NCBI RefSeq assembly: GCF_964355755.1
Contig: NC_092672.1
Span: 33,166,501 to 33,230,500 of the forward strand
DNA length: 64,000 bases
Reading direction: 5' to 3'
DNA from: Antedon mediterranea
Taxonomy: Eukaryota; Echinodermata; Crinoidea; Comatulida; Antedonidae
The notes beneath the pieces were generated by a model. It was not told the DNA's origin, made no database searches, and worked only from the letters and a program-made list of their open reading frames with translations. Shown here piece after piece: positions 1 to 28,399 of the stretch. The position numbers and the translations under genes are program-made. The stretch's first letter is position 1, and each line of letters starts with the position of its first letter.

Positions 1-1007
1 ATAATAATGTTCTAATCAGGGAGTTTACAACTCATATCAAAATATAATACACTTATTTATGGACGTGCAATAAACAATCAGCATTTCAAAGAAACCGATA
101 TTCTTCTGTTCTATTTGTCGGTAGAAACGTCGCGAAAGGTGAACATTTGCAACAAGATAAGATATAGAAAGCCCCTTTGTAAGCAATATAATATCATTAT
201 GTAACTTTAAAAAAAAAATGTTTGCTTGATTTTGTATAATTTATATTGTTTTGTTAAATTTATTCTTATTATAGGCCTGTAAATAATGGGTATCTTACTG
301 CGGTAGTACTATCTCATGCTCGATTAGAGTATGCCTGGGCCCATAGGCCAAGGCCTAGCCTAGGGCATAAGTAGGTCTAATAATAATAGGAATCCCGAAA
401 TGATTTGCCTTTTTTTAATTTTGAAAACTATTTAAGGCTATAGGCCAGAATAATTCATTCATATTTTGATTCATACAATAGTAGCCTGCATAGGCCTACT
501 AGCCTAGGCTCCTAGGCTAGTTTGGTTAGATTTTGGTCAAATAAATTCCTATTAGTACAGTATTAATCATGGAGTAAGTATTATTACTAATACTAGGGCC
601 TAGCCTATCTACTAAAAATAATATGTTGGTGTGCTGCACTGACACTGCTGCTGAGTAGCTACAGGTACAATAACAACATTCAACATTTCGCGCGAAAAAT
701 GATAAAACCCGCTCTAAAAAGAAACACCAATCAGAGATGTTGTTTCAAATACGTCATAAATCTGACCGACGTAAGAAAAAAATTTCAACTTTCGTAACAA
801 CACTAAAATCGACGTAAGCATACGACGTGTGTTTCACAGCCAAAATTTCAACTTTCGGGAGCAGCATAACTACAGATGTTTCTCTGTGGCCCGACACGAT
901 CTTGACTAACGTCAACGACGTCAATTTTTCTCAACTTTCGTAAGAGACGTAAGAAACGCAAGAATCGTTGCAAAATTCGACTTCTTACGTCGACAGGAAA
1001 CCAGCCT
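1..1007. other. Intergenic, TAGGCCTA-rich
   Basis: No convincing coding exon is seen. The first 620 bases are AT-rich with repeated GGCCTA/TAGGCC palindromes, a motif also scattered through the rest of the window. From about 775 to 960 the words TTTCAACTTTCG and ACGTAAG recur, a degenerate repeat related to the inverted-repeat elements that follow. Confidence 0.5.
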
Positions 1008-1207
1008 TTAAGCCTGTTTTCCTGTCGACGTTATTCGACGCTATCGTCGTTGATCAACGACGATCGTTTGGAAACGATCAACTTGAAATGATGACAATAG
1101 CGAGTACCTTTTCCTGTAAATCGTTAACATTTCCATGTTTACGTAGATGATCGCCGATTATTGTCAACGATAGCGTCGACTAACGTCGACAGGAAAACAG
1201 GCTTTAG
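1008..1207. mobile_element. Inverted-repeat element (MITE), copy 1 of a pair
   Basis: An element of about 200 bp whose ends are long inverted repeats: it opens with AAGCCTGTTTTCCTGTCGAC followed by GTTATTCGACGCTATCGT and closes with the reverse complement. A nearly identical copy starts 30 bp downstream. There is no transposase, so it is non-autonomous; the superfamily is not evident. Confidence 0.7.
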
Positions 1208-1236
1208 CTAAAGAGTTTGGCGACTCACAATGCCTC

Positions 1237-1437
1237 TTAAGCCTGTTTTCCTGTCGAAGTTATTCGACGCTATCATCGTTGATCGTTAACAGACGATCGT
1301 TTAAAAACCATCAAGTTGAAATGATAATGATAGCGAGTACCTTTTCCTGTAAATCGTTAACATTTCAATGTTTACATAGAAGATCGCCGATTATTGTTAA
1401 CGATAGCATCGCCTAACGTCGACAGGAAAACAGGCTT
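1237..1437. mobile_element. Inverted-repeat element (MITE), copy 2 of a pair
   Basis: Same family and orientation as the element at 1008-1207, differing by scattered substitutions and a few bases of length. Both copies carry CGATCGTTT and GCGAGTACCTTTTCCTG internally. The spacer between them includes CTTTAGCTAAAGAG, which recurs in modified form after this copy, so the pair probably arose by tandem duplication of element plus flank. Confidence 0.7.
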
Positions 1438-1510
1438 TAGCTATAAAGTTCGGAGACTCATAATGCCTCTAGGTTTAAAATCTGATTATACCAAATAGTT
1501 GTGCCCTCTT

Positions 1511-1955: not shown

Positions 1956-2270
1956 TTAGTTAAATAACATTCGAATGATCTCAACATTGTTCGCAGTAGC
2001 ATACTGCTGGACGGTCGGTGGAACTGTTGCATCTTTGCCGATGGCGAGTACCAGTATAGCCTTTTTTCCTTTTGCGGTGGCCACTAGTTGGTCAATACAA
2101 GCTTGGTTAATTCGTGGTTGAGATTTGGCTTCCCATACTTGTGTGACGTTCACGACAAAATCGGCTTGCCTTCTATTCATTGGTACTTCTGATTTGACGT
2201 AAGCCTTGCCAAAGCTAGCACGCAAATATTTCCCAACTTGTTTTTGAAACCAATATCCACGATTTGCCAT
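1956..2270 (-). CDS. Small PD-(D/E)XK-like nuclease, paralogue 1
   Basis: An intact reading frame of 104 residues. It has an N-terminal helix with FQKQVGKYLR, then VPMN, then D37 in QADF, a strand ending W46-E47-A48-K49, and later hydrophobic strands AILVLAIG and VEIIRM. This order (helix, D, about ten residues, E-x-K, alternating strands) is the signature of the PD-(D/E)XK restriction-endonuclease-like fold, and length is near the minimum for the fold. I do not recognise a named family; nuclease activity is inferred from the motif only. The ATG at 2270 is preceded 12 bp upstream by a pyrimidine-rich splice acceptor (CTTCTTTACAG, ending 2283) and a donor CTAAAG/GTATGT lies at 2712, implying a leader intron. 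Paralogues are at 4725-5033 (broken) and 7046-7354 (intact), all on the same strand. C terminus R-M-x-F-N is shared by all three. Confidence 0.75.
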   Translation of the reverse strand: MANRGYWFQKQVGKYLRASFGKAYVKSEVPMNRRQADFVVNVTQVWEAKSQPRINQACIDQLVATAKGKKAILVLAIGKDATVPPTVQQYATANNVEIIRMLFN

Positions 2271-2333
2271 TTTGTTGTATTTCTGTAAAGAAGAAAGGTC
2301 TACCGATCACATTTTTTGGCCTGGTGACATTCT

Positions 2334-2463
2334 AAGCTTTGTCTACACTATCAAACTTTTTATGATTTTCCCATATATGGACATGATGATGTCATATCAC
2401 TACCATATTTGGGCAAATCACACTTTTTTTGATAAACTAGTTTGATAGTGTATACAGAGCTTT
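2334..2463. mobile_element. MITE family A copy
   Basis: About 130 bp with inverted ends related to AAGCTTTGTCTACACTATC and TAGTGTATACAGAGCTT, and the internal words CCATATATGGACATGATG and TACCATATTTGGGCA. It lies in the leader intron of paralogue 1. Confidence 0.85.
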
Positions 2464-2479
2464 TATAGGTCGCTCTGGA

Positions 2480-2672
2480 GTGTGGAAGATTTGAAAATAG
2501 TGGAAGGGGAGGAACACTAGTGGATGGATAAGCAAGACTGTGAACCACAGCGATTTTAATTGCTTTTGCTTATCCTTGCCTCCTTAGATTTCCACCTGTC
2601 TTGTTTCTGTTACCTATGTTTTAAATGTATTTCATTTTAAAGGCTAAATAAAGAATGAATGAATGAATGAAC
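2480..2672 (+). mobile_element. Truncated non-LTR retrotransposon 3-prime end
   Basis: The stretch ends with GGCTAAATAAAGAATGAATG followed by more AATG units, a tail form common to CR1/L2-like LINEs. The upstream 100 bp has no open frame, so only the 3-prime untranslated end is present. The left limit is uncertain. Confidence 0.45.
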
Positions 2673-2712
2673 ACAGTGTGATTAATAATTCATACTAAAA
2701 AGTACACATACC

Positions 2713-3937
2713 TTTAGATTATGTTTCTAAAATTCTTTCTTCTTATTCTGCAATTGTTGAATTTTAAAGTGAAGTGCTGACGGACACGATCGAATTATTC
2801 TAATTTCCTCCTGTCAAAACTTTAAATATCTTATATTTACAGATAAAATATACATAGAAATTATGTTTGCTCTGAGATAACAAGAACATATAAATAAAAA
2901 CTAACAAAAATATTAAAATTGTGTCACTTCCACTCTCGTACGTTATACTAACAAACATTCAGTGCTGTTAAACATTAGGAAATTATCTAAAAACAGCACT
3001 GATAGAATAAACTCTGAATAGTTGTTTAAATATTAAAACATTGTATATACTTCTGGAAAAACCAATAACTAGCAATGTCATATTGTTTGTATGAATTGTC
3101 ATTTCCTTAACGTATTAGGCCTACTGTATTATTCCGGTATTTTACTGTTAATTGTCAAATCAAACTTATGTGACATAATGTAAACAAGTTTAAAACAATA
3201 CAACTATTTTATTTCGTTAAAACTTTTGAAATTAACAAAGTTTAAAAAAATGGGCATTTGTATTATATAAGACCTTTACATTTTATCATAGGCCCTATAT
3301 TATTCTGATATAAATTATACTTATTTACAGTCATTTATAATCAGAAATTTCTGTGACAGCTAGTACTTACTTCTTTTAACAAAATAAATAAACTTTGTTT
3401 TGTGGAAGAACCTACCTAGGCCTATAGAATAGAATTAGGCGTCTTTCATTATTTTTATAGCTCCCGGCCGGTCGTCCGGCAAATAAAATCGCATCTCAAT
3501 GTTTCGTTTTCACGACGCTCCACGCGGCTATGCGCCAATCGTTTTACGCGATATGCGCGTAGCCGGTACCAATGACGCGAACCTTAAGTATGACATTATT
3601 TGATCGGGTTTTAAAAGACTGCATAAATGTTTATCCTATAGTTCTAACCTGTCTAATTTCTTTTGTTTATGTATTCACATTTTCTTCGGGCAATACTTAA
3701 ATATAAATATATTAATGTTGTTGAATACTGTATTAGAATATTATCTAAAAAATTTATGATTGGATAAAACTCTTCTTGTGATGATACAGAAACTATGAAT
3801 ATGTTCAAATATTAAAACATTTTAATCGTGGAAAAACCAAAGCTAGCTATGTATAATGTATTTGTGAGAATTGTCATTTCCTTACTGATTATTTTTATCC
3901 TTTATAACTACGGGTATTTGTCATTGTGTTTAAAAGA
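2713..3937. other. Upstream region of paralogue 1 with repeated modules
   Basis: No coding exon is seen. It should hold the first exon and promoter of paralogue 1. Two copies of a shared module are present: CTGGAAAAACCAA at 3053-3065 and GTGGAAAAACCAA at 3829-3840, each followed by AGCTATG/AGCAATG and then GAATTGTCATTTCCTTA. The second also has the CCAAT-type GATTGGATAAAA at 3758. Confidence 0.45.
3758..3885 (-). promoter_or_regulatory. Repeated upstream module of the nuclease array
   Basis: Contains GATTGGATAAAA (reverse of a CCAAT box) and, 70 bp on, GTGGAAAAACCAA, then GAATTGTCATTTCC. Related modules lie at 3052, 5893, 6320, 7685 and 8281. At 5893 and 7685 it sits just beyond the leader donor of a nuclease paralogue, where a promoter is expected. 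Its function is inferred from position and repetition only. Confidence 0.4.
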
Positions 3938-4066
3938 AAACAAAGTAAGTCCTACCTGGAGTTCCAATTGATTAAGAAAACACATTATAATTGATTAATA
4001 GTATAATCTTGCAATATATAATGTGTTGTCTTTAATCAATTGAAACTCCAGGTAGGACTTTGTTTT
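3938..4066. mobile_element. Hairpin-forming inverted repeat
   Basis: A 129-bp palindromic unit: AAAACAAAGTAAGTCCTACC, then TGGAGTTCCAATTGATTAA, is matched at the far end by its near-perfect reverse complement ending GTAGGACTTTGTTTT. The loop is AT-rich. It resembles a foldback MITE; no second copy is in the window. Confidence 0.65.
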
Positions 4067-4164
4067 GTGGGATAATCTTTGTTAACATCAACTCATAGTT
4101 AACTTATAGCATTTTAACAATAAAACATATTTGGTATTACTTAGGTGTGTTTTTAGTTAGAAAT

Positions 4165-4415
4165 AGTGATGGTATTGGAGTTGTGGCTTGGTGGTTATGA
4201 TGCTTGGCTACCACTCCAATGGTCCGGGGTTTAAGTCCCATCACATGTCAGGATTTTTTCTAAGGACCAAATTACTCCACTCCCAAAGACTTGTAACAAG
4301 ACTTTGTTTATGTAGAGCATCTTGTGAAATGTTTGTCTTGTGAACCTCCGAGGGTCCCTAATGATTAGCAATAGCTGGATGGATCACCCTCATTAAATAT
4401 GGTTAAATAATAAAA
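4165..4415 (+). mobile_element. tRNA-derived SINE
   Basis: Starts with a tRNA-like region: A-box-like GTGGCTTGGTGGTTATG, and about 40 bp later a B-box-like GGTCCGGGGTTTAAGTCCC. A unique body follows (CCTCCGAGGGTCCC, AGCTGGATGGATCACCC) and an A-rich tail of AATAAT units. This is the head-body-tail layout of a Pol III retroposon. Confidence 0.65.
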
Positions 4416-4724
4416 TAAATTATAATATAATAATAATAATAATCATAATAATAACTGACATATTTTTCTCCAAAAAAAAAAGAAGCTTTCGATTTAGCTT
4501 TACAATTAGGCCTATTAAAAATACATTTCTAAATTACACATTATTATGCTCATCACCTTCATCAATTCTAATTTGTTTTTTCAATTACGTTTTGTTAAAA
4601 CTGCACCAATAACTCGCCCTACACACTATATATCTAAACTATTGTCAATGAAATGAAACTGAAATTTTAATTTTTACTCTTAGTATAACAATGTATTTAG
4701 ATAGATTGTTATAATGCAGTAATG

Positions 4725-5033
4725 TTAATTGAATGTCATTCTACAGATGATAACATGTTTATCCTTTGCATACTTCTCGACGTGTTCCGAAACTCTTGCA
4801 TCTTTCCCGATGGCGAGTATAGCCTTTTTACCTCCTGCAGTATCCACTAGCTGGTCAACACAATCTGTTTCAATTTTTGGCTAAGATTTGGCTTCCCATA
4901 CTTGATTACCCATGACTAGAAAATCAGCTTGCCTACCATTCATTTTTACATGTTCCTTGACTTGGGTCTTGCCGTGTTCCGTACGCAAAAATTCTCCAAC
5001 TTTTTTCTGAAACTCATATCCATGGTTCGCCAT
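4725..5033 (-). pseudogene. Small PD-(D/E)XK-like nuclease, paralogue 2 (broken)
   Basis: The minus-strand frame starting ATGGCGAACCATGG at 5033 gives 102 codons closely matching paralogue 1, including D37 in QADF, W46-E47-A48-K49 and the end R-M-T-F-N before TAA. Codon 51 (4883-4881) is TAG, directly after the ExK-Ser; the downstream frame is otherwise intact without indels. The acceptor GTTTACAG (AG at 5051-5050) and an upstream donor TTTAAAG/GTGAGC at 5771 are preserved. A single nonsense codon in an otherwise clean frame suggests recent loss, an allele, or a sequencing error. If read, the product would stop just after the predicted active site. Confidence 0.8.
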
Positions 5034-5892
5034 TTTGTTTGTAATTTTTCTGTAAACAAAGTTATTTTGCTAGAATGATTAATTGAGCTGGGACGCAGAA
5101 ACGCATATGGGAAGAAAGGGAATTAGAATGCGAACCCTATTCAGTGGCCTATTATATCGGTGGTGTAAATCGTCTAAAATCATGATAATAAAATATACGG
5201 GTTTTTAAATTGAAAATCATGGCTCTTTATTGTTGCGCGCAACCCAATTATATAGATAGAAAATGGCAGCCCTTAGGTTTTGCATCGTTTAGCTTGAGCA
5301 CGATCAATAGTGAATGCAGTTGTTATTATTGTTCACAATACTGTATAGTATATACACAAACATTGTATTGTAACACGCAGGAATGGTTATCAACAACACT
5401 TATTATGTTCCATTGCTATGGTTATTCCATGCACCTATAATTAGAAGTAGTAGGCCTACTAATGTATAGGTACTTGGTTATTCCAACAAAAGCCATCGCC
5501 TAAGCAAATCATCAGGCTCATCGTCTGTTTACAACAAGTTAGACCTACAATTGTTATTATGCATTATAGTTTATTAGAATAATTGCTAACATAACCTGTT
5601 ATTAAATAATATTGAATTGCATCCAAATTCCTCATGTTTAATCAAGTTCAAATCTGAATTTCGTTGTAACATACAGTAGCCTACGTTATTTAGATTTTCC
5701 CACAGATTATTAATATTTTCTGCATGGTAACAACGTAAATTAATAAATAAAAACATAATACAACGCTCACCTTTAAAATTAAAAACGTTTCTAAAATGTT
5801 AGAATGGTTTTAAAGGATGTGGAATTGGGTTGATGAAACACGCCGACTATTAAACGTAAAAGTGCCTATAGGCCTACTAAAATACCAGTGCT

Positions 5893-5972
5893 GATTGGAT
5901 AGAATTGTTCCCGTGATAGGAATATACATATTTTGTCTAAGAATAAACATTACATCATTCTGGAAAAACCAA
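5893..5972 (-). promoter_or_regulatory. Repeated upstream module, paralogue 2
   Basis: GATTGGATAGAATTGTTCCC then ACATTACATCATTCTGG and TGGAAAAACCAA. It lies 120 bp beyond the predicted leader donor of paralogue 2. The CRE-like core seen in other copies (TTACGTCA) is TTACATCA here, so this copy, like its gene, is decayed. Confidence 0.4.
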
Positions 5973-6319
5973 TAAGGGCTTAAATATAGAACTGATCGTT
6001 AAATTCTTGTTTTCCAGCCCTCTGTAGGTTACTCAACAAATATAATAATTAGATTCATTGTGTAGCTTTTAATTCTTTTTAATCTTGTAAAGCAATACTA
6101 CCAATATTTGTTTTTAATGCATGCTAATAAGAATATATTGGAAATGTGTTACATTTTTTTATCTAACAAAAAAATATTTTCAATTTTAATTTTTAACTTT
6201 TGTAAATCAGTATTTGAAATTTAGCCTTATAGTGTAATAAGGTAGATTTTTAATAAAAGCCGAATTTATATATATATATATGATTTACAATATCATTCCA
6301 AAACTATAAGATAAAATCA

Positions 6320-6366
6320 TGCACATGACATAGATAATGGACATTACGTCATTCTGGAAAAACCAG
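6320..6366 (-). promoter_or_regulatory. Repeated upstream module without a gene
   Basis: CATGACATAGATAATGGACA, TTACGTCATTCTGG and GGAAAAACCAG closely match the module at 7685-7746. No nuclease reading frame follows within the next kilobase on the minus strand other than the pseudogene at 4725, so it may be the remnant of a lost paralogue. Confidence 0.4.
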
Positions 6367-6711
6367 CGATATGGCATAAAATAAAAATACAGGTACTTGA
6401 GTTTATTTGTATTCGATAAACCAAAACAACAAAACACTCAAAGCATATTTCATCCAGGGGCAGCCTGGTATATTGTAGATCCGAAGAAGGTGGGGGGTAT
6501 TTCCAAATTTCCCAAAAAGTAATTTGTAAATTATTAATATATAACAAAGTCAATCATAATCGATCACGGATTTCCATTAAAAATAATAGAAAGAACGAAA
6601 GTGGATATAAACGTAAAAAATAAAAGAAATATAAGTGTGGACAGAGACCAAAAAGCTTGAAACCTTTATATTACGGCTTGACCATCGGTTAAACTAAGGC
6701 TCATGCCTACG

Positions 6712-6866
6712 GCCCTACACTATCAAACTAGTTTGACAAAAAAGTGTGATGTGCCAAAATATGGTAGTGATATGGCCAAATGTGGTAGAGATATAACATC
6801 ATCATGTACATATTTGGGCACATCACATTATTTTTTCACATAAAGTTTGATAGTGTAGACAGAGCT
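6712..6866. mobile_element. MITE family A copy
   Basis: Shows CTACACTATCAAACTAGTTT, AAAGTGTGATGTGCC, the AAATATGGTAGTGATATG core and the right end AAAGTTTGATAGTGTAGAC followed by AGAGCT. The outer left end is altered. Confidence 0.85.
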
Positions 6867-7045
6867 AAGAGTTACAATAACAAATTAAAACGGATTGTAA
6901 TCATCATAATTGTAGGCGTCACCCAACAATATGTATGTAGTATACTAAACTTTGCAATAATTAACACATAATACAGTTATTTCTGCGTTTGGTAAAATTT
7001 TATTTTCTTACTAAATAAATTATCTTTTATTTTTGAGCAGAACAG

Positions 7046-7354
7046 TTAGTTGAACGACATTCGGACAACTTCTACGCCGTTAGTTGCAGCATGCTGCAAA
7101 ACGGTTTGCGAAATAGACGCATCTCTCCCGATAGCAAGTACAGGTTTCCCCACTCCACTTGCAATTCTTGCTGCTTGAAAAACATACTCCTTTTCAATCT
7201 TCGATGAAGACTTGGCCTCCCATATCTGGTTGTTGCCACAGACAAAATCGGCGTAACTGCCGTTCATTGGTACCTGTGATCTCACGCCACTGTATCGGCT
7301 GCGCAGATAGTTGCCAACTTGCCCCTCAAATGATGCTCCATGGTTATACGCCAT
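7046..7354 (-). CDS. Small PD-(D/E)XK-like nuclease, paralogue 3
   Basis: An intact frame of 102 residues. E10 (SFEGQVG), VPMN, D36 in YADF, I44-W45-E46-A47-K48 and strands PVLAIG and VEVVRM match the other two copies, so the D...ExK layout of a PD-(D/E)XK fold is retained, here with the helix-1 glutamate that many active members have. I chose ATG 7354 rather than 7378 because the upstream codons overlap a splice acceptor (TTATTTCTTCAG, AG at 7365-7364) conserved in the paralogues. A donor CTGAAG/GTAAGT lies at 7535. After the stop, AATAAA occurs within 25 bp, a likely poly(A) signal. The protein differs more from paralogues 1 and 2 than they do from each other. No signal peptide or membrane segment is seen; a soluble protein is expected. 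The substrate is unknown. Confidence 0.8.
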   Translation of the reverse strand: MAYNHGASFEGQVGNYLRSRYSGVRSQVPMNGSYADFVCGNNQIWEAKSSSKIEKEYVFQAARIASGVGKPVLAIGRDASISQTVLQHAATNGVEVVRMSFN

Positions 7355-7362
7355 TATTTTTG

Positions 7363-7535
7363 TCTGAAGAAATAACATTTGTTTAGAGTCAAGAATAATG
7401 CCCAGCTACCCTCTGCAAACATCTTAGAATCTGGAATTAATATTCTACAACCGAACCCAATAATGCGTTTTACAAAACAATCTATTTTCAGTTATGAATG
7501 TAAAAATAGTTTATCGATAATAATTTAAACTTACC
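7363..7535 (-). other. Predicted 5-prime leader intron of paralogue 3
   Basis: Donor GTAAGT at 7534 and acceptor CTTCAG ending 7364 bound an intron of about 170 bp before the coding exon. Positions relative to the ATG match those at paralogues 1 and 2. Confidence 0.5.
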
Positions 7536-7684
7536 TTCAGAATTGTTGCCAACAAACCTAACAAACAAGTTTTTGTTATTACAGTATTAAAAAGTGTAAC
7601 TGCTGAGCTAGCGATCGATAAAAAAACGAGTTATAGTAAAGCGTGCTGCGTTCTTTGCTTATAAAGAAATGATTTCAAACCTGT

Positions 7685-7746
7685 GATTGGATAAAATCCT
7701 ACTCGTGACGCAGATAATGTACATTACGTCATTCTGGAAAAACCAA
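7685..7746 (-). promoter_or_regulatory. Repeated upstream module, paralogue 3
   Basis: Best copy of the module: GATTGGATAAAA (CCAAT box on the minus strand), GTGACGCAGATAATG, TTACGTCA (ATF/CREB-like) and CTGGAAAAACCAA, within 62 bp and 150 bp upstream of the leader donor. GGAAAAACC resembles a kappa-B half site. The factor assignments rest on consensus words alone. Confidence 0.45.
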
Positions 7747-22192: not shown

Positions 22193-25100
22193 GTAAGTTA
22201 TTTACTATCATTACTGTTTTTACAATTGAATGGTGCGGCAATAAAGACTTCAAACTCATTGTATTGTGTTTTCATAACAAGAAATGCACAAATTGGAAAT
22301 GACAATTCCGTTTTAGCTGTGGAAGATATAGTAACATTCAAAGTACAAATAGTGCTAAAAACATTTACTACTCTATCAAGTCAAATTCTGGAAGAGACTT
22401 TTATGCACCTATTTTGGTTCTGGACACGGCTATTTTCTAAGTCTAAAGCTCTGTCTACACTATCAAACTTTATGTGACAAAAAAAATGTGATGCCCATCT
22501 ATAGACAAGATGATGTCATATCTCAACCATATTTGGGCATATCACTACCATATTTGGGCACATCACACTTTGTTGTCAAACTAGTTTGATAGTGTAGACA
22601 GAGCTTTATAGGTCTAGGCTAGAGGCTTCCTTAAACTGTGCATACCAAAATGGTCTCTCCTGTAATTCCTTAGGTCTGCTTTATTTAAAACAAAAACTAT
22701 GCTATTAATGGCTTATTCCACCTAATACCAGCACTAAAATATTCTGTTTCCACAGGGTATGCGCTAAGTAGCACCCAGACTAGGGGTAATCCAACTCCAC
22801 ACACTGTAAAAATGCCCAATAAGCTGTTTGTACCAACTGACAACACTGTGCCAAAAAAAGAAGAATCACTTGACAACCTACAGAGGAGAGTGCATGCTAA
22901 AGAAGAGGTGATAGAAATGATATCTGGTGGTATGTTATATCTTAATGTATAATCAGAAATATTTGATAATAAAGAGAAAGAAGAGTGCATGCTAGAGAAG
23001 AGGTGATAGAAATGATATCTGGTATGTTTGTATCATCAGAAATATATGATAAAATAGAGAACATCAGGTCTAAGTACGGTCACTTGCACTGATGAAGGGC
23101 TAGTGTTGCTTGAAAGCTCTGCAAATTTTTCTACCCGTTTTACTTTATCATTTTGATTAGCTTTTTGCTTATTTTATTTTGTATCTCCATTGAGATCCAG
23201 TCACTGATACCCCAGCATTGTCAGTCAGTAATTTTGGATTTATAATAGAGAGAATAGATACTATAAATTTCCCTACAATCAAGCTCTTTTTGACCAGTTG
23301 AAATACTGTACTGTACAGTAGAAACCTTTAAAACAATATTTTACCAGCTCTGTAAGTTGTTTTTGTAGCCTGCCACAGAAAAGTTTTTTACAAGAAATTC
23401 ATGTCTTATTGCTTTCCTTTAAACATTTTTCCAGAAAACAATGAAGAATGGTTACCGAAGTATTATGCAAATATGTTCAACAACAACACATTGATTTCGT
23501 ATTTAAAAGAGCGTTTACTTGGTTACTGTAATCCACCTGAAGTACCTACTACTGGCAAAGAAGGTAATGTAGTTAATAACATTAATACATATAATAGATA
23601 TTTCATATTAATACAGTATTTAAATTTCTGTACTTAAAAAATAGAGGGTGCTATAACACTTTTTGTTTTCCAGTTCAGTCAAATCTCAAAAAGCCAGACA
23701 AGCGTGTAATGTAGTTGGCCAATTGCCTGGCTGGCTGTATTTGCACAACAAATCACACAAACCAATAGTGTTGGTGGTCTTATTTTGTGCCTAACTTACC
23801 TGGATAAACCTGAATAGACCTTTTTGCTATTAAAGGGTGGACACTTAAATAGAAAATGAAATTCAGTTATTCAGATAACTACTATGTTGGCACCATACAA
23901 TATGCAAACAAGTAAATACTGTGTAGAACCAACCCCCTTGATTGGTACACAACTATTTAAGGCGACACTTTCCCATGTTTTAACACTAAAGCCAACCATA
24001 TTCAGGAAAACGCTTATAAGGGGACACTTTGTTGGGTCCCAAAGCTGTACCATCAATCAGTTCTTTATTTTACCTTAATAGTGTACTGATTCTTATCTCA
24101 TCTCATTTCAGGTTTAGTAGTGCCAGGTTATTCTCTAGAGAGTGTTCACATTCTGATCCGACATGGCGACAGAACACCACTAGAAAGCAACGGTATGGGA
24201 TCCTCTGCAGACATAAACTGCAACTTGATGATTGTGTCTGAAACTCTACCAGACAAGATGTTTGAGTTGTTAGCGACGGACTTCAACGAGTGGAAAGAAC
24301 TACTAAGGAAAGAGGATGAACTCATGTTATCAGACATGAAGTTAAAAAGCTCTTTGCAAAAAAGTGCAGTTAGTACACTAAACATGAACTACGTATCCGC
24401 CCTATTAACTGATAGTAATAAATGTCGTACGTCTCAGCTGACCCCAAGCGGTTGGCGGCAACATCTCGCAATCGGGGACTTCCTTCGTAAAGTATACACA
24501 CCTCACAAACTTTTTAATCCACAAGCAATTGATCACAAAGATATTATGAACTTGCAGACAACCTCGTTCTCACGCACTATGCAGAGTGCGATAGCTTTAC
24601 TTTATGGTTTATTACCAGAAGATCAGATACTGAAAACGCCACCGATGAAGATCGCCCGTGCTTTGAATTTCTGTTATGGTGCTTCGTGCAATTGTCCAGC
24701 TGCTCAGCAACTTCTTAACACAGTATCGTCAGAGAAAGCAAAACACAAAACAGATAATTCGTACACTCGTGAAATTTCAAAAGGTATTAAAAAGGTTTTG
24801 TATGATAAAACACCAAATTCACCAAAATTGCCGCATTTCTTTGCACTTCTTGATCACTTCACATCATTTTTATGTCATGGTGAAAAGTTGCCTTGTGGTC
24901 CTACCAAATGTATTGAGCTTGACCAGGTACAGCAGGTATTTCAGTACGTTGATAAGTTGGAACAAGACTTAAAAGCACACGAGGATACGACAAGTATGAA
25001 ACATGCCAGACTGTTTATGTACCCATTACTGAAAGACATAGCAGATGCAATAGCACGTAACAAAACCGACCATCGTTTTTCTCTCTACTCGGGACACGAT

Positions 25101-25385
25101 TTAACAATCACACCTTTTCTTGCCATTCTTGGACTTTCTGATTTTCGTTGGCCTAATTACGCATCTCGTATTGTAATCGAAGCTTGGTCAAAAGCGAAAA
25201 TGGTTTTTATTCGTGTTCTCTACAATGGGGATGACATGACAAGTAATGTAAGCTTTTGTCGTAATAAACTTAATCAGGATGGACTATGCCCGTTGAATAA
25301 ACTTTTGGATTTTGTTAATAAGCAAAATTTTGTTTTATTTGAATCGAAAAGTTATAAAAAAGCTTGTTTTGCCACTCAAATGTAA
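22117..25385 (+). CDS. PXYLP1: 2-phosphoxylose phosphatase-like histidine acid phosphatase
   Basis: A type II membrane protein of the histidine acid phosphatase family. Known PXYLP1 removes the 2-phosphate from xylose in the glycosaminoglycan linker in the Golgi, permitting chain elongation. Four exons (22117-22192, 22756-22929, 23435-23563, 24112-25385) join in frame to 1653 nt, 550 residues; the human enzyme is 480. Residues 7-24 form a signal anchor, 26-126 a variable stem, and 127-550 the catalytic domain in a single large exon. R143-H144-G145-D146-R147-T148-P149 is the nucleophile motif and H455-D456 (SGHDLT) the proton donor pair. Landmarks specific to this subfamily include SRTMQSAIALLYGLLP, CYGASCNCP, and GLCPLNKLL near the end. 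Start: second codon is also ATG; either could serve. Exon 2 has a partial duplicate of its 3-prime end just downstream. Confidence 0.92.
22446..22607. mobile_element. MITE family A copy
   Basis: AAGCTCTGTCTACACTATC and the reverse complement at the far end, near perfect. In phosphatase intron 1; TA on both flanks. Confidence 0.9.
22756..22929 (+). CDS. PXYLP1: Phosphatase exon 2: stem region
   Basis: Acceptor TTTCCACAG; encodes a polar, low-conservation stem ending E-V-I-E-M-I-S-G. Donor GGTG/GTATGT. Joins exons 1 and 3 in frame. The domain gives no family check. Confidence 0.7.
22979..23028 (+). repeat. Partial duplicate of phosphatase exon 2 end
   Basis: AGAGTGCATGCTAGAGAAGA, then GGTGATAGAAATGATATCTG/GTATG repeats the last 45 bases of exon 2 and its donor, offset by about 95 bp. 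One GGT is missing, so the donor follows TCTG directly and would leave the same phase. Confidence 0.85.
23435..23563 (+). CDS. PXYLP1: Phosphatase exon 3
   Basis: Encodes N-N-E-E-W-L-P-K-Y-Y-A and GYCNPPEVP, leading into the catalytic domain. Acceptor TTTTTCCAG, donor GAAG/GTAATG. Confidence 0.85.
24112..25385 (+). CDS. PXYLP1: Phosphatase exon 4: whole catalytic domain
   Basis: Acceptor CTCATTTCAG, then 423 codons and TAA. Carries RHGDRTP, the cysteine-rich middle region and SGHDLTITPFLAILG. An entire catalytic domain in one exon is unusual next to the small exons before it. Confidence 0.95.
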
Positions 25386-26756: not shown

Positions 26757-27382
26757 AGCCCCATTCCCTACGTTTTTTAGATGTAATTTAAGATCACAAA
26801 CTATATTTAATGTAAAAATAATACTATATGGTCCTATTCCGATAACTTTTTTCGTCTTTAAACGGTTAAAAATGTGAAAAATAAGTCGATTTTAATAATT
26901 ATAGCGGCCCGCTATAAATCCCAAAATGCATTGCGCGCGGATTGATATTTTTGTTTTTCACCTGTAATTCGCCCACTTTTCGATCGATCGTGAGGCCAAA
27001 ACAAATGGAAGACTCCTAACTTTTCAGCGAAAATACCGGGTTTTCCCCAATTTGTATCAACGGAGTCTGGCAAAAATAGAAAGACAATTAATGCAGCAAC
27101 TATACAACGTCAGGCTAGGTATATAGCTAGCGTACGATGTTCGCACGTTACCGATGTTTACCAGCTAGGCCTACAAAACTAAGCCTAGCCAGGCTAGGCC
27201 TAAGACCGTCCACGAGAGGTCGATCGCCGCGAGCTACTTAGGTAGTGCATTGTTTCTCACTTTTTATCATAATTTACCATAAAACGTACATTTAAGACAA
27301 GGAATGACATGGTTTAATGTTTTTAAAGTGATATATATGTATTATTTTCCAAAAAACGTCCAAAATTGCAGGGAAGGGGTCT
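26757..27382. mobile_element. Nested TTAA-flanked element, piggyBac-like MITE
   Basis: A 626-bp insert bordered by TTAA at 26753-26756 and 27383-27386. The ends are imperfect inverted repeats: AGCCCCATTCCCTACGTTTT and, from the other side, AGACCCCTTCCCTGCAATTT. TTAA duplication and C-rich ends fit piggyBac-type elements. It interrupts the RNase H frame and has no transposase, so it is non-autonomous. Confidence 0.75.
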
Positions 27383-27386
27383 TTAA

Positions 27387-27737
27387 GTACACAATGGGAT
27401 AATCATTACCCTCACCATCTATTTGGCTCAGCACTGCACCTATGCCATAATTTGAGGCATCGGTTTGCAATATAAACATCTTATCAAAATTTGGGGCTTT
27501 TAATACATTATCATCAGTAAGTCGTTTCTTTAAAGTTACAAAGGCATTTTCACATTGTTCATTCCACTTAACGGTATTACTTTTACTCTTTAAAGTTAAA
27601 TCAATCAATGGCTTAGCAATATCGGCATAGTTCTGTACAAATTTTCTGTAATAGCCAGTTAAACCGAGAAATGATCGGACTTGTTTCTTAGACAAAGGTC
27701 TGGGGAACTTTTCCACAGCCTCAACCTTATCAATCAT
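27387..27737 (-). pseudogene. Pol fragment: RT thumb and start of RNase H
   Basis: Contains FLGLTGYYRKFV, the start of the connection region in Ty3/gypsy pol, and Q-T-D-A-S-N-Y-G-I-G, the first RNase H aspartate motif. The upstream catalytic palm (YxDD) is absent. The frame is interrupted at TTAA 27383 by the nested element; residues translated beyond that point are not pol. Confidence 0.85.
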
Positions 27738-28399
27738 GGGTCTAATTTCTCCATTACCAATCTTTTTAAATAATGGGAGAGCTCATTCAGCCATTCCCTG
27801 ATGGACATATCTTTAACTCTGTTTGAATTTCTAAATTTAAATCTGTAAGTCTCTGCGGACACATCATACTTTTCTAAGATTGCCTTCTTTAAGGTATCAT
27901 AATCTACACATTCTTTTACGGTTAAGGATGCATATGCTGTCCTAGCTTTACCAGACAGTTCAGGTGCTAACCTAGCGGACCACGTATTCTTATCCCAACC
28001 TGTGGCTTCTGCCAAGTGTTCAAATGTTCTAAAATATATATCAATATCATCGGATTCCTTCAAAGTAGGAACCTTTACCTTCATTTCATCTACTATATTC
28101 CTAGCATTACTGTAGCTTGACCTATTTTCTAATTCCATCATTTTCACTCTTTCTTGTGATTCAATTTTTCTTAGCTCTATATCTAACTTTTTGTTTTTGG
28201 CCTCGAACTTCATTCGAAAATATTCGAGCATCATATCTTTAGGCATACCGCCGGGTATTTCGGGCAAATCAATATCCCTAGCCATTTTATCATATTTTTC
28301 ATTGACTTGGTCAACCTCTTCTTGGTCAACCATATCTTCCCTACTATCTTTGTCTGACATAGTCTTATCTATATTTTTACCCGATCTTAAAGTTGTCAT
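27734..28399 (-). CDS. Retrotransposon gag-like protein
   Basis: A 221-residue frame with an acidic N-terminal part (about 1-50), a charged helical stretch around residues 60-105, and a capsid-like part from about 110 with W-D-K-N-T-W and ELSGKARTAY, as in gypsy-type capsid proteins. There is no zinc knuckle before the stop. The frame ends in ATGA, overlapping the next pol fragment by four bases in another frame; this is a deletion junction, not a normal gag-pol boundary, because the pol part begins at the reverse transcriptase thumb. Confidence 0.7.
   Translation of the reverse strand: MTTLRSGKNIDKTMSDKDSREDMVDQEEVDQVNEKYDKMARDIDLPEIPGGMPKDMMLEYFRMKFEAKNKKLDIELRKIESQERVKMMELENRSSYSNARNIVDEMKVKVPTLKESDDIDIYFRTFEHLAEATGWDKNTWSARLAPELSGKARTAYASLTVKECVDYDTLKKAILEKYDVSAETYRFKFRNSNRVKDMSIREWLNELSHYLKRLVMEKLDP

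What the first reader, a model, noticed from the sequence alone, without database searches (positions are those of the whole stretch)
1956..7354. Tandem array of tiny PD-(D/E)XK-like nucleases in an animal genome
Three same-strand paralogues of 102-104 residues share D(36/37) then W-E-A-K ten residues on, an N-terminal amphipathic helix, and two later hydrophobic strands. This is a minimal PD-(D/E)XK core with nothing attached. Stand-alone proteins of this size and layout are common in bacteria, phages and selfish elements, but I know of no described animal family like this. Possibilities: a captured bacterial or mobile-element nuclease, a domesticated transposon nuclease, or an anti-element defence factor. 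The nuclease call is motif inference.
Basis: partly seen in the sequence, partly recalled or inferred. Interest (0 to 1): 0.75.

Follow-up and report, generated by a model that had tools for sequence, protein, structure and literature searches.

The report
Tiny stand-alone nuclease gene family
An unnamed animal carries a small family of genes, each about 100 residues long, that look like bare DNA- or RNA-cutting enzymes of the bacterial restriction-enzyme kind and are kept by natural selection; what they cut is unknown, and defence is the leading guess.

Summary
On the minus strand, 1956-2270 and 7046-7354 encode intact 104- and 102-residue proteins; 4725-5033 is a third copy with an in-frame TAG. 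The array is larger than the window: eight copies in about 35 kb of C3 (four intact) and two intact copies on C7. All six intact proteins keep D, ExK and a later Q. AlphaFold models of one C3 and one C7 protein give the PD-(D/E)XK layout; nearest solved folds are NucS/EndoMS, AF1548, Can2/Cdn1 and SfsA. They look like host genes: 5'-UTR splice signals, a promoter module whose seven genome-wide matches all lie upstream of family copies, omega 0.36 with omega = 1 rejected. No library profile, prokaryotic or viral sequence matched convincingly; eukaryote genomes could not be searched. Function is inferred: an intracellular nuclease effector, probably a captured and domesticated bacterial-type nuclease. 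Weak support for defence: 4 of 10 copies broken, and the C7 copies flank two VLIG-type GTPase genes. Captured restriction-fold nucleases in animals are already described (Tox-REase-8, PMC3482391), so this is a new variant, not a new kind.

The parts
1956..2270 (-). Intact coding exon, copy W1 (104 aa, type A); stop codon 1956-1958
   Evidence: AlphaFold model mc20a9d60f86a
2283..2711 (-). Probable intron in the 5' UTR of W1 (AAAG|GTATG ... TTTACAG|); a transposon-like repeat lies inside it
   Evidence: Splice-site reading (a second donor-like site was listed too); no RNA data
3035..3065 (-). Promoter-like module of W1, near copy (TTGGTTTTTCCAGAA core; diverged after that, no CCAATCA)
   Evidence: D6
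3750..3840 (-). Second, farther promoter-like module of W1 (TTGGTTTTTCCA ... TATCCAATCA)
   Evidence: D9
4725..5033 (-). Third copy W2 (type A), in-frame TAG at 4883-4881: probable pseudogene
5885..5972 (-). Promoter-like module upstream of W2 (TTGGTTTTTCCAGAATGATGTAATGT ... TATCCAATCA)
6310..6366 (-). Extra promoter-like module with no coding copy of its own (87% like the W3 module over 68 nt)
   Evidence: D8
7046..7354 (-). Intact coding exon, copy W3 (102 aa, type B); stop codon 7046-7048
7364..7534 (-). Probable intron in the 5' UTR of W3 (GAAG|GTAAGT ... TTCTTCAG|)
   Evidence: no RNA data
7677..7746 (-). Promoter-like module of W3 (TTGGTTTTTCCAGAATGACGTAATGT ... TATCCAATCA); exact match to the genome-wide pattern

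Best explanation
A host gene family of stand-alone, probably active PD-(D/E)XK nucleases of about 100 residues. Supported by computation: the genes look real (one conserved coding exon, 5'-UTR splice signals, a shared promoter-like module, purifying selection), the predicted fold is PD-(D/E)XK, and D, ExK and a later Q are invariant in all six intact copies. Inferred: D, E and K hold a divalent metal and cut phosphodiester bonds; no targeting domain is attached and no signal peptide is evident by eye, so the protein acts inside the cell, perhaps as a dimer. The likeliest use is a cell-autonomous effector that cuts foreign or misplaced nucleic acid and is switched on through the shared promoter. 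The likeliest origin is capture of a bacterial-type restriction-fold nuclease domain, then domestication and birth-and-death duplication.
For: Fold: best-model mean pLDDT 83, pTM 0.76-0.77; AF1548 Z 10.6, EndoMS 10.3, Cdn1 9.4, Can2 9.3; SfsA E 2.3e-4, Cdn1 8.9e-4. Active site: D37, E47, K49, Q61 (W1 numbers) invariant in 6 of 6 intact proteins. Sub-threshold Pfam rows include Cas4 (3 of 6 members), SfsA and PDDEXK_9, all restriction-fold families. Selection: codon-model omega 0.365 (GY) and 0.362 (GY+F3X4); fixing omega at 1 costs 21.3 and 24.9 lnL units for one parameter. Promoter: 7 of 7 pattern matches in the genome lie upstream of family copies and on their strand; the reversed control gave 1. 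Splice signals in 8 of the 8 copies read, of 10. Defence reading: 4 of 10 copies broken; the C7 copies flank two VLIG-type GTPase genes; animals have recruited bacterial toxin nucleases before (PMC3482391).
Against: No sequence relative outside this genome was found, so bacterial capture is unproven. No expression or activity data. The best sub-threshold Pfam row (NAD-GH, E 0.018) is unrelated, and so are all NCBIfam rows. The VLIG link was noticed after the fact and holds for C7, not C3. The structural neighbours (repair, CRISPR-linked, SfsA, RPB5) point to no single function. The AlphaFold models rest on six paralogues; for W1 the five models ranged from pLDDT 58 to 83, and its Foldseek PDB search gave nothing at E 0.001.
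Confidence: 0.6

Rival explanations
1. A host DNA- or RNA-repair or processing nuclease (used like NucS/EndoMS or Holliday-junction resolvases) that happened to duplicate, with no role in defence.
For: The best structural rows include EndoMS/NucS (Z about 10-12); 26 columns are invariant in the six intact proteins.
Against: Repair nucleases are usually few and conserved (recalled); here 4 of 10 copies are broken and C3 and C7 groups differ by dN 0.45-0.68. No second, DNA-binding domain is attached.
Confidence: 0.2
2. A nuclease domesticated from a transposable element (for example one with a restriction-like endonuclease domain), now a host gene.
For: An R2 retrotransposon protein is at rank 14 of the Foldseek list for the C7 model, E 0.13. 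Transposon remains abound in the C3 cluster.
Against: No dispersed, element-like copies: the three protein searches gave the same ten loci in two places (candidate lists are capped). That the R2-type endonuclease lacks this D/ExK spacing is recalled, not tested.
Confidence: 0.12
3. A catalytically dead or regulatory relative that keeps the fold, such as a nucleic-acid-binding protein or an inhibitor.
For: RPB5, which has this type of fold and no known nuclease role (recalled), is also a structural match (Z up to 7.8).
Against: D, E and K are all invariant in the six intact proteins. Two of the four broken copies (33141.8k, 33163.8k) have lost active-site residues; the other two (33171.2k, 33138.9k) still encode them around a stop or frameshift, so they do not bear on this.
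Confidence: 0.1
4. Decaying duplicates or spurious open frames without function.
For: 4 of 10 copies are broken; the closest intact pair has dN/dS 0.57.
Against: Omega 0.36 overall, and promoter and splice signals shared across large synonymous distance.
Confidence: 0.03

Closest known systems
Tox-REase toxin domains, above all Tox-REase-7 and -8 (Zhang et al. 2012, PMC3482391)
   Same: Restriction fold; a G-x-x-x-(E/Q) start, D, then (E/Q)xK, with a later Q in Tox-REase-7; Tox-REase-8 has entered arthropods and a placozoan.
   Different: Here G-x-x-x-(Q/E/A), AD, ExK, Q: not DD and QxK (Tox-REase-8), not IxD (Tox-REase-7); nothing fused; no profile match among 6 members.
NucS/EndoMS nuclease domain and AF1548 (archaea)
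   Same: Highest VIA-align Z (9.4-11.7) over most of the model.
   Different: 9-17% identity; NucS has a further N-terminal domain (recalled); no sequence match.
Can2/Card1/Cdn1 (CRISPR-linked nucleases)
   Same: Same core, Z 7-11; defence nucleases.
   Different: Those carry a CARF sensor domain (recalled); nothing is fused here.
Cas4, SfsA, PDDEXK_9 (Pfam)
   Same: The restriction-fold families among the sub-threshold rows; SfsA is also the best Foldseek hit of the C7 model.
   Different: E 0.02-0.16, below any cut-off; no cysteine is invariant, whereas Cas4 has a four-cysteine cluster (recalled).
R2-type retrotransposon restriction-like endonuclease
   Same: Restriction-like fold, found in animals.
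   Different: Part of a large element protein; this family is stand-alone.

Membership tests
PD-(D/E)XK (restriction-like) superfamily | alpha-beta-beta-beta-alpha-beta core | tested here: met
   Predicted; VIA-align Z about 9-11 to PD-(D/E)XK chains, where 7-8 is typical of models without a clear match
PD-(D/E)XK (restriction-like) superfamily | D ... (D/E)xK on neighbouring core strands, conserved | tested here: met
   6 of 6 intact proteins; strands 37-40/44-49 in W1 and 41-47/54-59 in the C7 protein
PD-(D/E)XK (restriction-like) superfamily | Metal-dependent phosphodiester cleavage | not testable with these tools
   Needs the protein
Any curated family in Pfam or NCBIfam | Match above the curated cut-off | tested here: not met
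   0 of 6 members. PADLOC best E 0.011 in 6 members, PHROGs best 0.18 in 2 members. Low sequence similarity is usual in this superfamily (PMC1913061, abstract start in the listing), so this does not speak against the fold
Tox-REase-7 (PF15649) | GxxxE, IxD, ExK, Q motifs (PMC3482391) | tested here: not met
   ExK and Q in 6 of 6; E at the GxxxE place in 2 of 6 (Q in 2, A in 2); I two before D in 0 of 6
Tox-REase-7 (PF15649) | Profile match | tested here: inconclusive
   Not among the rows of 6 members at E up to 10; genome search silent, but it rang in none of 14 control genomes either
Tox-REase-8 | GxxxQ, DD, QxK motifs (PMC3482391) | tested here: not met
   AD and ExK in 6 of 6; Q at the GxxxQ place in 2 of 6
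Mrr_cat (PF04471) | Profile match | tested here: not met
   Not among the rows of 6 members; no match in this genome at E 0.1, while 6 of 14 control genomes rang
NucS/EndoMS | Two-domain protein with N-terminal DNA-binding domain (recalled) | tested here: not met
   Single domain of 102-113 residues
Immune-inducible gene | Induction on challenge | not testable with these tools
   No expression data

The most novel reading that the evidence does not exclude
The animal runs its own multi-copy set of minimal restriction-like nucleases as an inducible, cell-autonomous defence against viral or transposon nucleic acid, under one shared promoter type and partly linked to very large interferon-type GTPases: a host-encoded counterpart of bacterial restriction effectors.
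Probability: 0.3. Interest if true: 0.8.

Novelty: new variant of a known kind. Interest (0 to 1): 0.58.

Why it matters
Animals have recruited bacterial toxin nucleases before (CIDE-type nuclease, the teneurin C-terminal domain, Tox-REase-8; passages of PMC3482391). A bare 100-residue restriction-fold family with an invariant active site, a shared promoter and repeated duplication would be a simple, easily expressed example. It would make directly testable whether an animal uses restriction-type cutting inside its own cells, and how it then spares its own nucleic acid.

Tried and rejected
Prokaryotic and viral relatives. tblastn of P0001, P0003 and P0006 against plasmids gave 3, 3 and 2 records, best E 6, 5 and 4; of P0005 and P0002 against phages, 103 records (best E 0.07) and 1 record (E 2). 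Of the 103, 99 are Mycobacterium phages matched at gene 10, annotated as hypothetical protein or HNH endonuclease; in the one record opened (Chah) the match is on the strand opposite to that gene, so I treat it as chance. The Thioclava match lacks the D/ExK pattern. The Burkholderia match was opened only as a gene table; the other plasmid matches and the other phage matches were not opened. The search for related loci gave no confirmed relative in viral contigs or genome contigs. Those scans need exact short peptides, and one search used a 31-residue query, so distant relatives can be missed. PDB sequence searches: best E 0.15 (W1 alone) and 0.22 (profile), judged chance.

Family libraries: Pfam, NCBIfam, PHROGs (12, two members), PADLOC. 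The EspF, NAD-GH, DUF1010 and mtd_2nd rows were judged chance from their scores. Genome search with Mrr_cat: none; with Tox-REase-7: none, but the controls were silent too.

Structure. Foldseek of the W1 model against PDB gave no E at or below 0.001 and mixed nucleases with unrelated rows such as eIF5B and cystathionine synthases. Against viral models one row passed 0.001, with rmsd 10.2. I rely on VIA-align, which only re-ranks Foldseek's hits, and on the second model. Families missing from the VIA lists are not excluded.

Species: tried through genome notes with 18 chromosomes (25 of 41 papers listed, none at 354 Mb among the abstracts shown); dropped. Literature listings without a description of this family: (listings and abstract starts only). 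They do not show that none exists in print. (VLIG) was a listing only. PMC3482391 was seen as passages, not whole.
Full report
What is there. On the minus strand the window holds two intact short genes, W1 at 1956-2270 (104 aa) and W3 at 7046-7354 (102 aa), and between them a copy, W2, at 4725-5033 with an in-frame TAG after WEAKS. The genome (354 Mb, 18 contigs; window = C3:33166501-33230500) was searched with three members. They gave ten family loci in two places: eight in about 35 kb of C3 and two on C7, all on the minus strand. Four on C3 and both on C7 are intact. Of the four broken ones, one has a TAG, one is frameshifted, one lacks the active-site segment and one is a fragment. The searches score only the best candidates, so ten is a lower bound. 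That the host is an animal is taken from gene content (VLIG-type GTPases, receptor-like exons); no call names the species.

Protein. The other five intact proteins share 39-60% identity with W1. Twenty-six columns are invariant in all six, among them N3, G5, F8, Q11, A36-D37-F38, W46-E47, K49-S50 and Q61 (W1 numbers). Length varies mainly between the D strand and the ExK strand. A stop follows the FN or YN end in all six, so nothing is attached downstream.

Fold. AlphaFold with the six-sequence alignment gave best-model mean pLDDT 83.3, pTM 0.76 for W1 (five models 58-83) and 83.4, 0.77 for the C7 23640k protein (five models 78-83). The latter has helix 12-23, strands 28-34, 41-47, 54-59, helix 66-76, strand 81-86, helix 94-103, strand 105-109, with D43 and E57/K59 on neighbouring strands: the PD-(D/E)XK layout. 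VIA-align, W1 model: AF1548 Z 10.6 (97 residues, 2.9 A), EndoMS 10.3, Cdn1 9.4, Can2 9.3, VC1899 9.0. C7 model: NucS 11.7 (102 residues, rmsd 8.1), Cdn1 10.7, EndoMS 10.6, AF1548 10.4, SfsA 8.7. The tool gives 7-8 as the typical best Z for models without a clear match. Foldseek, C7 model: SfsA E 2.3e-4, Cdn1 8.9e-4. Foldseek, W1 model: no PDB row at 0.001 (best 0.033; unrelated rows among the top); in the viral library one row at 7.1e-4 with rmsd 10.2, then a 270-residue restriction endonuclease at 1.5e-3, TM 0.73. RPB5 and CdiA-CT toxins also appear, at lower Z. These results fix the fold, not the function.

Genes, not relics. Pairwise dN/dS was 0.18-0.57 in 12 of 15 pairs; in 3 pairs synonymous sites were saturated. 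A codon model over 101 gap-free codons gave omega 0.365 (GY) and 0.362 (GY+F3X4); fixing omega at 1 lowered lnL from -1566.6 to -1587.8 and from -1606.6 to -1631.5, one parameter each. The closest pair (W3 and 33141k) has the highest ratio, 0.57, so constraint on the most recent copies is less clear.

Promoter and intron. Ten module copies were aligned. They begin with TTGGTTTTTCCA or a near form; eight of ten carry a CCAAT(C/T)A-like box within about 100 bp (not the near W1 copy and not the extra one at 6310-6366). For the eight genes measured the module starts 392-957 nt before the ATG. With two mismatches allowed, the pattern TTGGTTTTTCCAGAATNANGTAATGT occurs seven times in the genome, all seven on the minus strand upstream of family copies; the reversed control occurs once. 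One of the seven (6341-6366) has no coding copy of its own. Another (33142.2k) has the 33141.8k broken copy between it and the intact 33141k gene, so its assignment is unclear. The modules of W1 and of C7 23640k are too diverged to be among the seven. Eight of the ten copies were read for splice signals (33141.8k and 33163.8k were not). All eight have an acceptor-like CAG 5-25 nt before the ATG. Seven have a GT(A/G)AG donor-like site about 175-215 nt after the module start; W1 has GTATG at about 350. Three of the eight list further donor-like sites, so the exact exons need RNA data. The module parts resemble a bZIP-type site (TGAYGTAAT) and a CCAAT box; these names are recalled, not tested.

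Neighbourhood. On C7 the two nuclease genes stand on either side of two genes for very large GTPases of the URGCP/VLIG type (PF25496 E 7.6e-66 and PF25683 in one of them; positions). The stretch 23594.5-23627.5k between them was not read, so other genes may lie there. The family has 21 matches genome-wide at E 1e-5, in four places on C4, C1 and C7. Taking 50 kb on each side gives about 0.9 of 354 Mb (my arithmetic), so the link is unlikely by chance for one site. I noticed it after the fact, and C3 has no such match. The C3 cluster contains retrotransposon copies, and receptor-like exons follow it in the window (named by eye).

Relatives. No member reached a curated cut-off in Pfam or NCBIfam. 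The sub-threshold Pfam list has six rows: Cas4 (3 of 6 members, best 0.076), SfsA (0.023) and PDDEXK_9 (0.16), which are restriction-fold families, and NAD-GH (0.018), DUF1010 and mtd_2nd, which are not. Plasmid, phage, viral-contig, genome-contig and PDB sequence searches found nothing convincing. Eukaryote genomes could not be searched.

Comparison. Zhang et al. 2012 (PMC3482391; passages) list ten Tox-REase clades. Tox-REase-7 has GxxxE, IxD, ExK, Q; Tox-REase-8 has GxxxQ, DD, QxK. The family here has G-x-x-x-(Q/E/A), AD, ExK, Q: like them in layout, a member of neither by motif. The same paper reports Tox-REase-8 in Daphnia, mosquitoes, ants, beetles and Trichoplax, and at least 14 toxin domains shared with metazoans. 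A captured restriction-fold nuclease in an animal is therefore a known kind; this family, in its bare form with its shared promoter, appears to be a new variant.

How it works. Supported by computation: fold, invariant active-site residues, selection, shared cis-signals. Inferred: metal-dependent cutting of DNA or RNA; action inside the cell; a defence role (about 0.4-0.5 in my judgement) over repair (0.2) or element domestication (0.12); a bacterial-type origin. Nothing here says what is cut, or what protects the host's own nucleic acid.

Noticed in passing
window 2331-2462, 6716-6870 and 1527-1805: Copies of a short inverted-repeat, transposon-like element (ends CACTATCAAACT) with an internal 21-nt unit of varying copy number (6.2 copies at 1556-1687). 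A 117-base piece (2346-2462) had 59 listed matches; 40 of 1546 first-look candidates were scored. One copy sits inside the probable W1 intron.
   Followed up: partly
window 1004-1470: Two tandem copies of a 233-bp unit with inverted arms, about 89-90% alike.
   Followed up: no
window 3942-4065: A 34-nt inverted repeat pair (91%) with 56 nt between the arms, MITE-like.
   Followed up: no
G000:C7:23620486-23621340 and 23633662-23634516; G000:C4:32.63-33.04 Mb: Very-large-GTPase (URGCP/VLIG type) genes: 21 matches, 15 of them in a 0.41 Mb cluster on C4, where 8 of the 15 lie in frames of 1,571-1,636 codons (one of these with a TAG inside the match).
   Followed up: partly
L018/L019, G000:C3:33150956-33155171: Two neighbouring open frames (278 and 1011 aa) that look like the two frames of a non-LTR retrotransposon inside the nuclease cluster (named by eye).
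   Followed up: no
window 24120-25385 plus: 421-aa open frame resembling a histidine-acid-phosphatase-type enzyme (2-phosphoxylose phosphatase-like by eye).
   Followed up: no
window 27342-28399 minus: Two adjoining open frames resembling gag and reverse-transcriptase pieces of a Gypsy-type retroelement (by eye).
   Followed up: no
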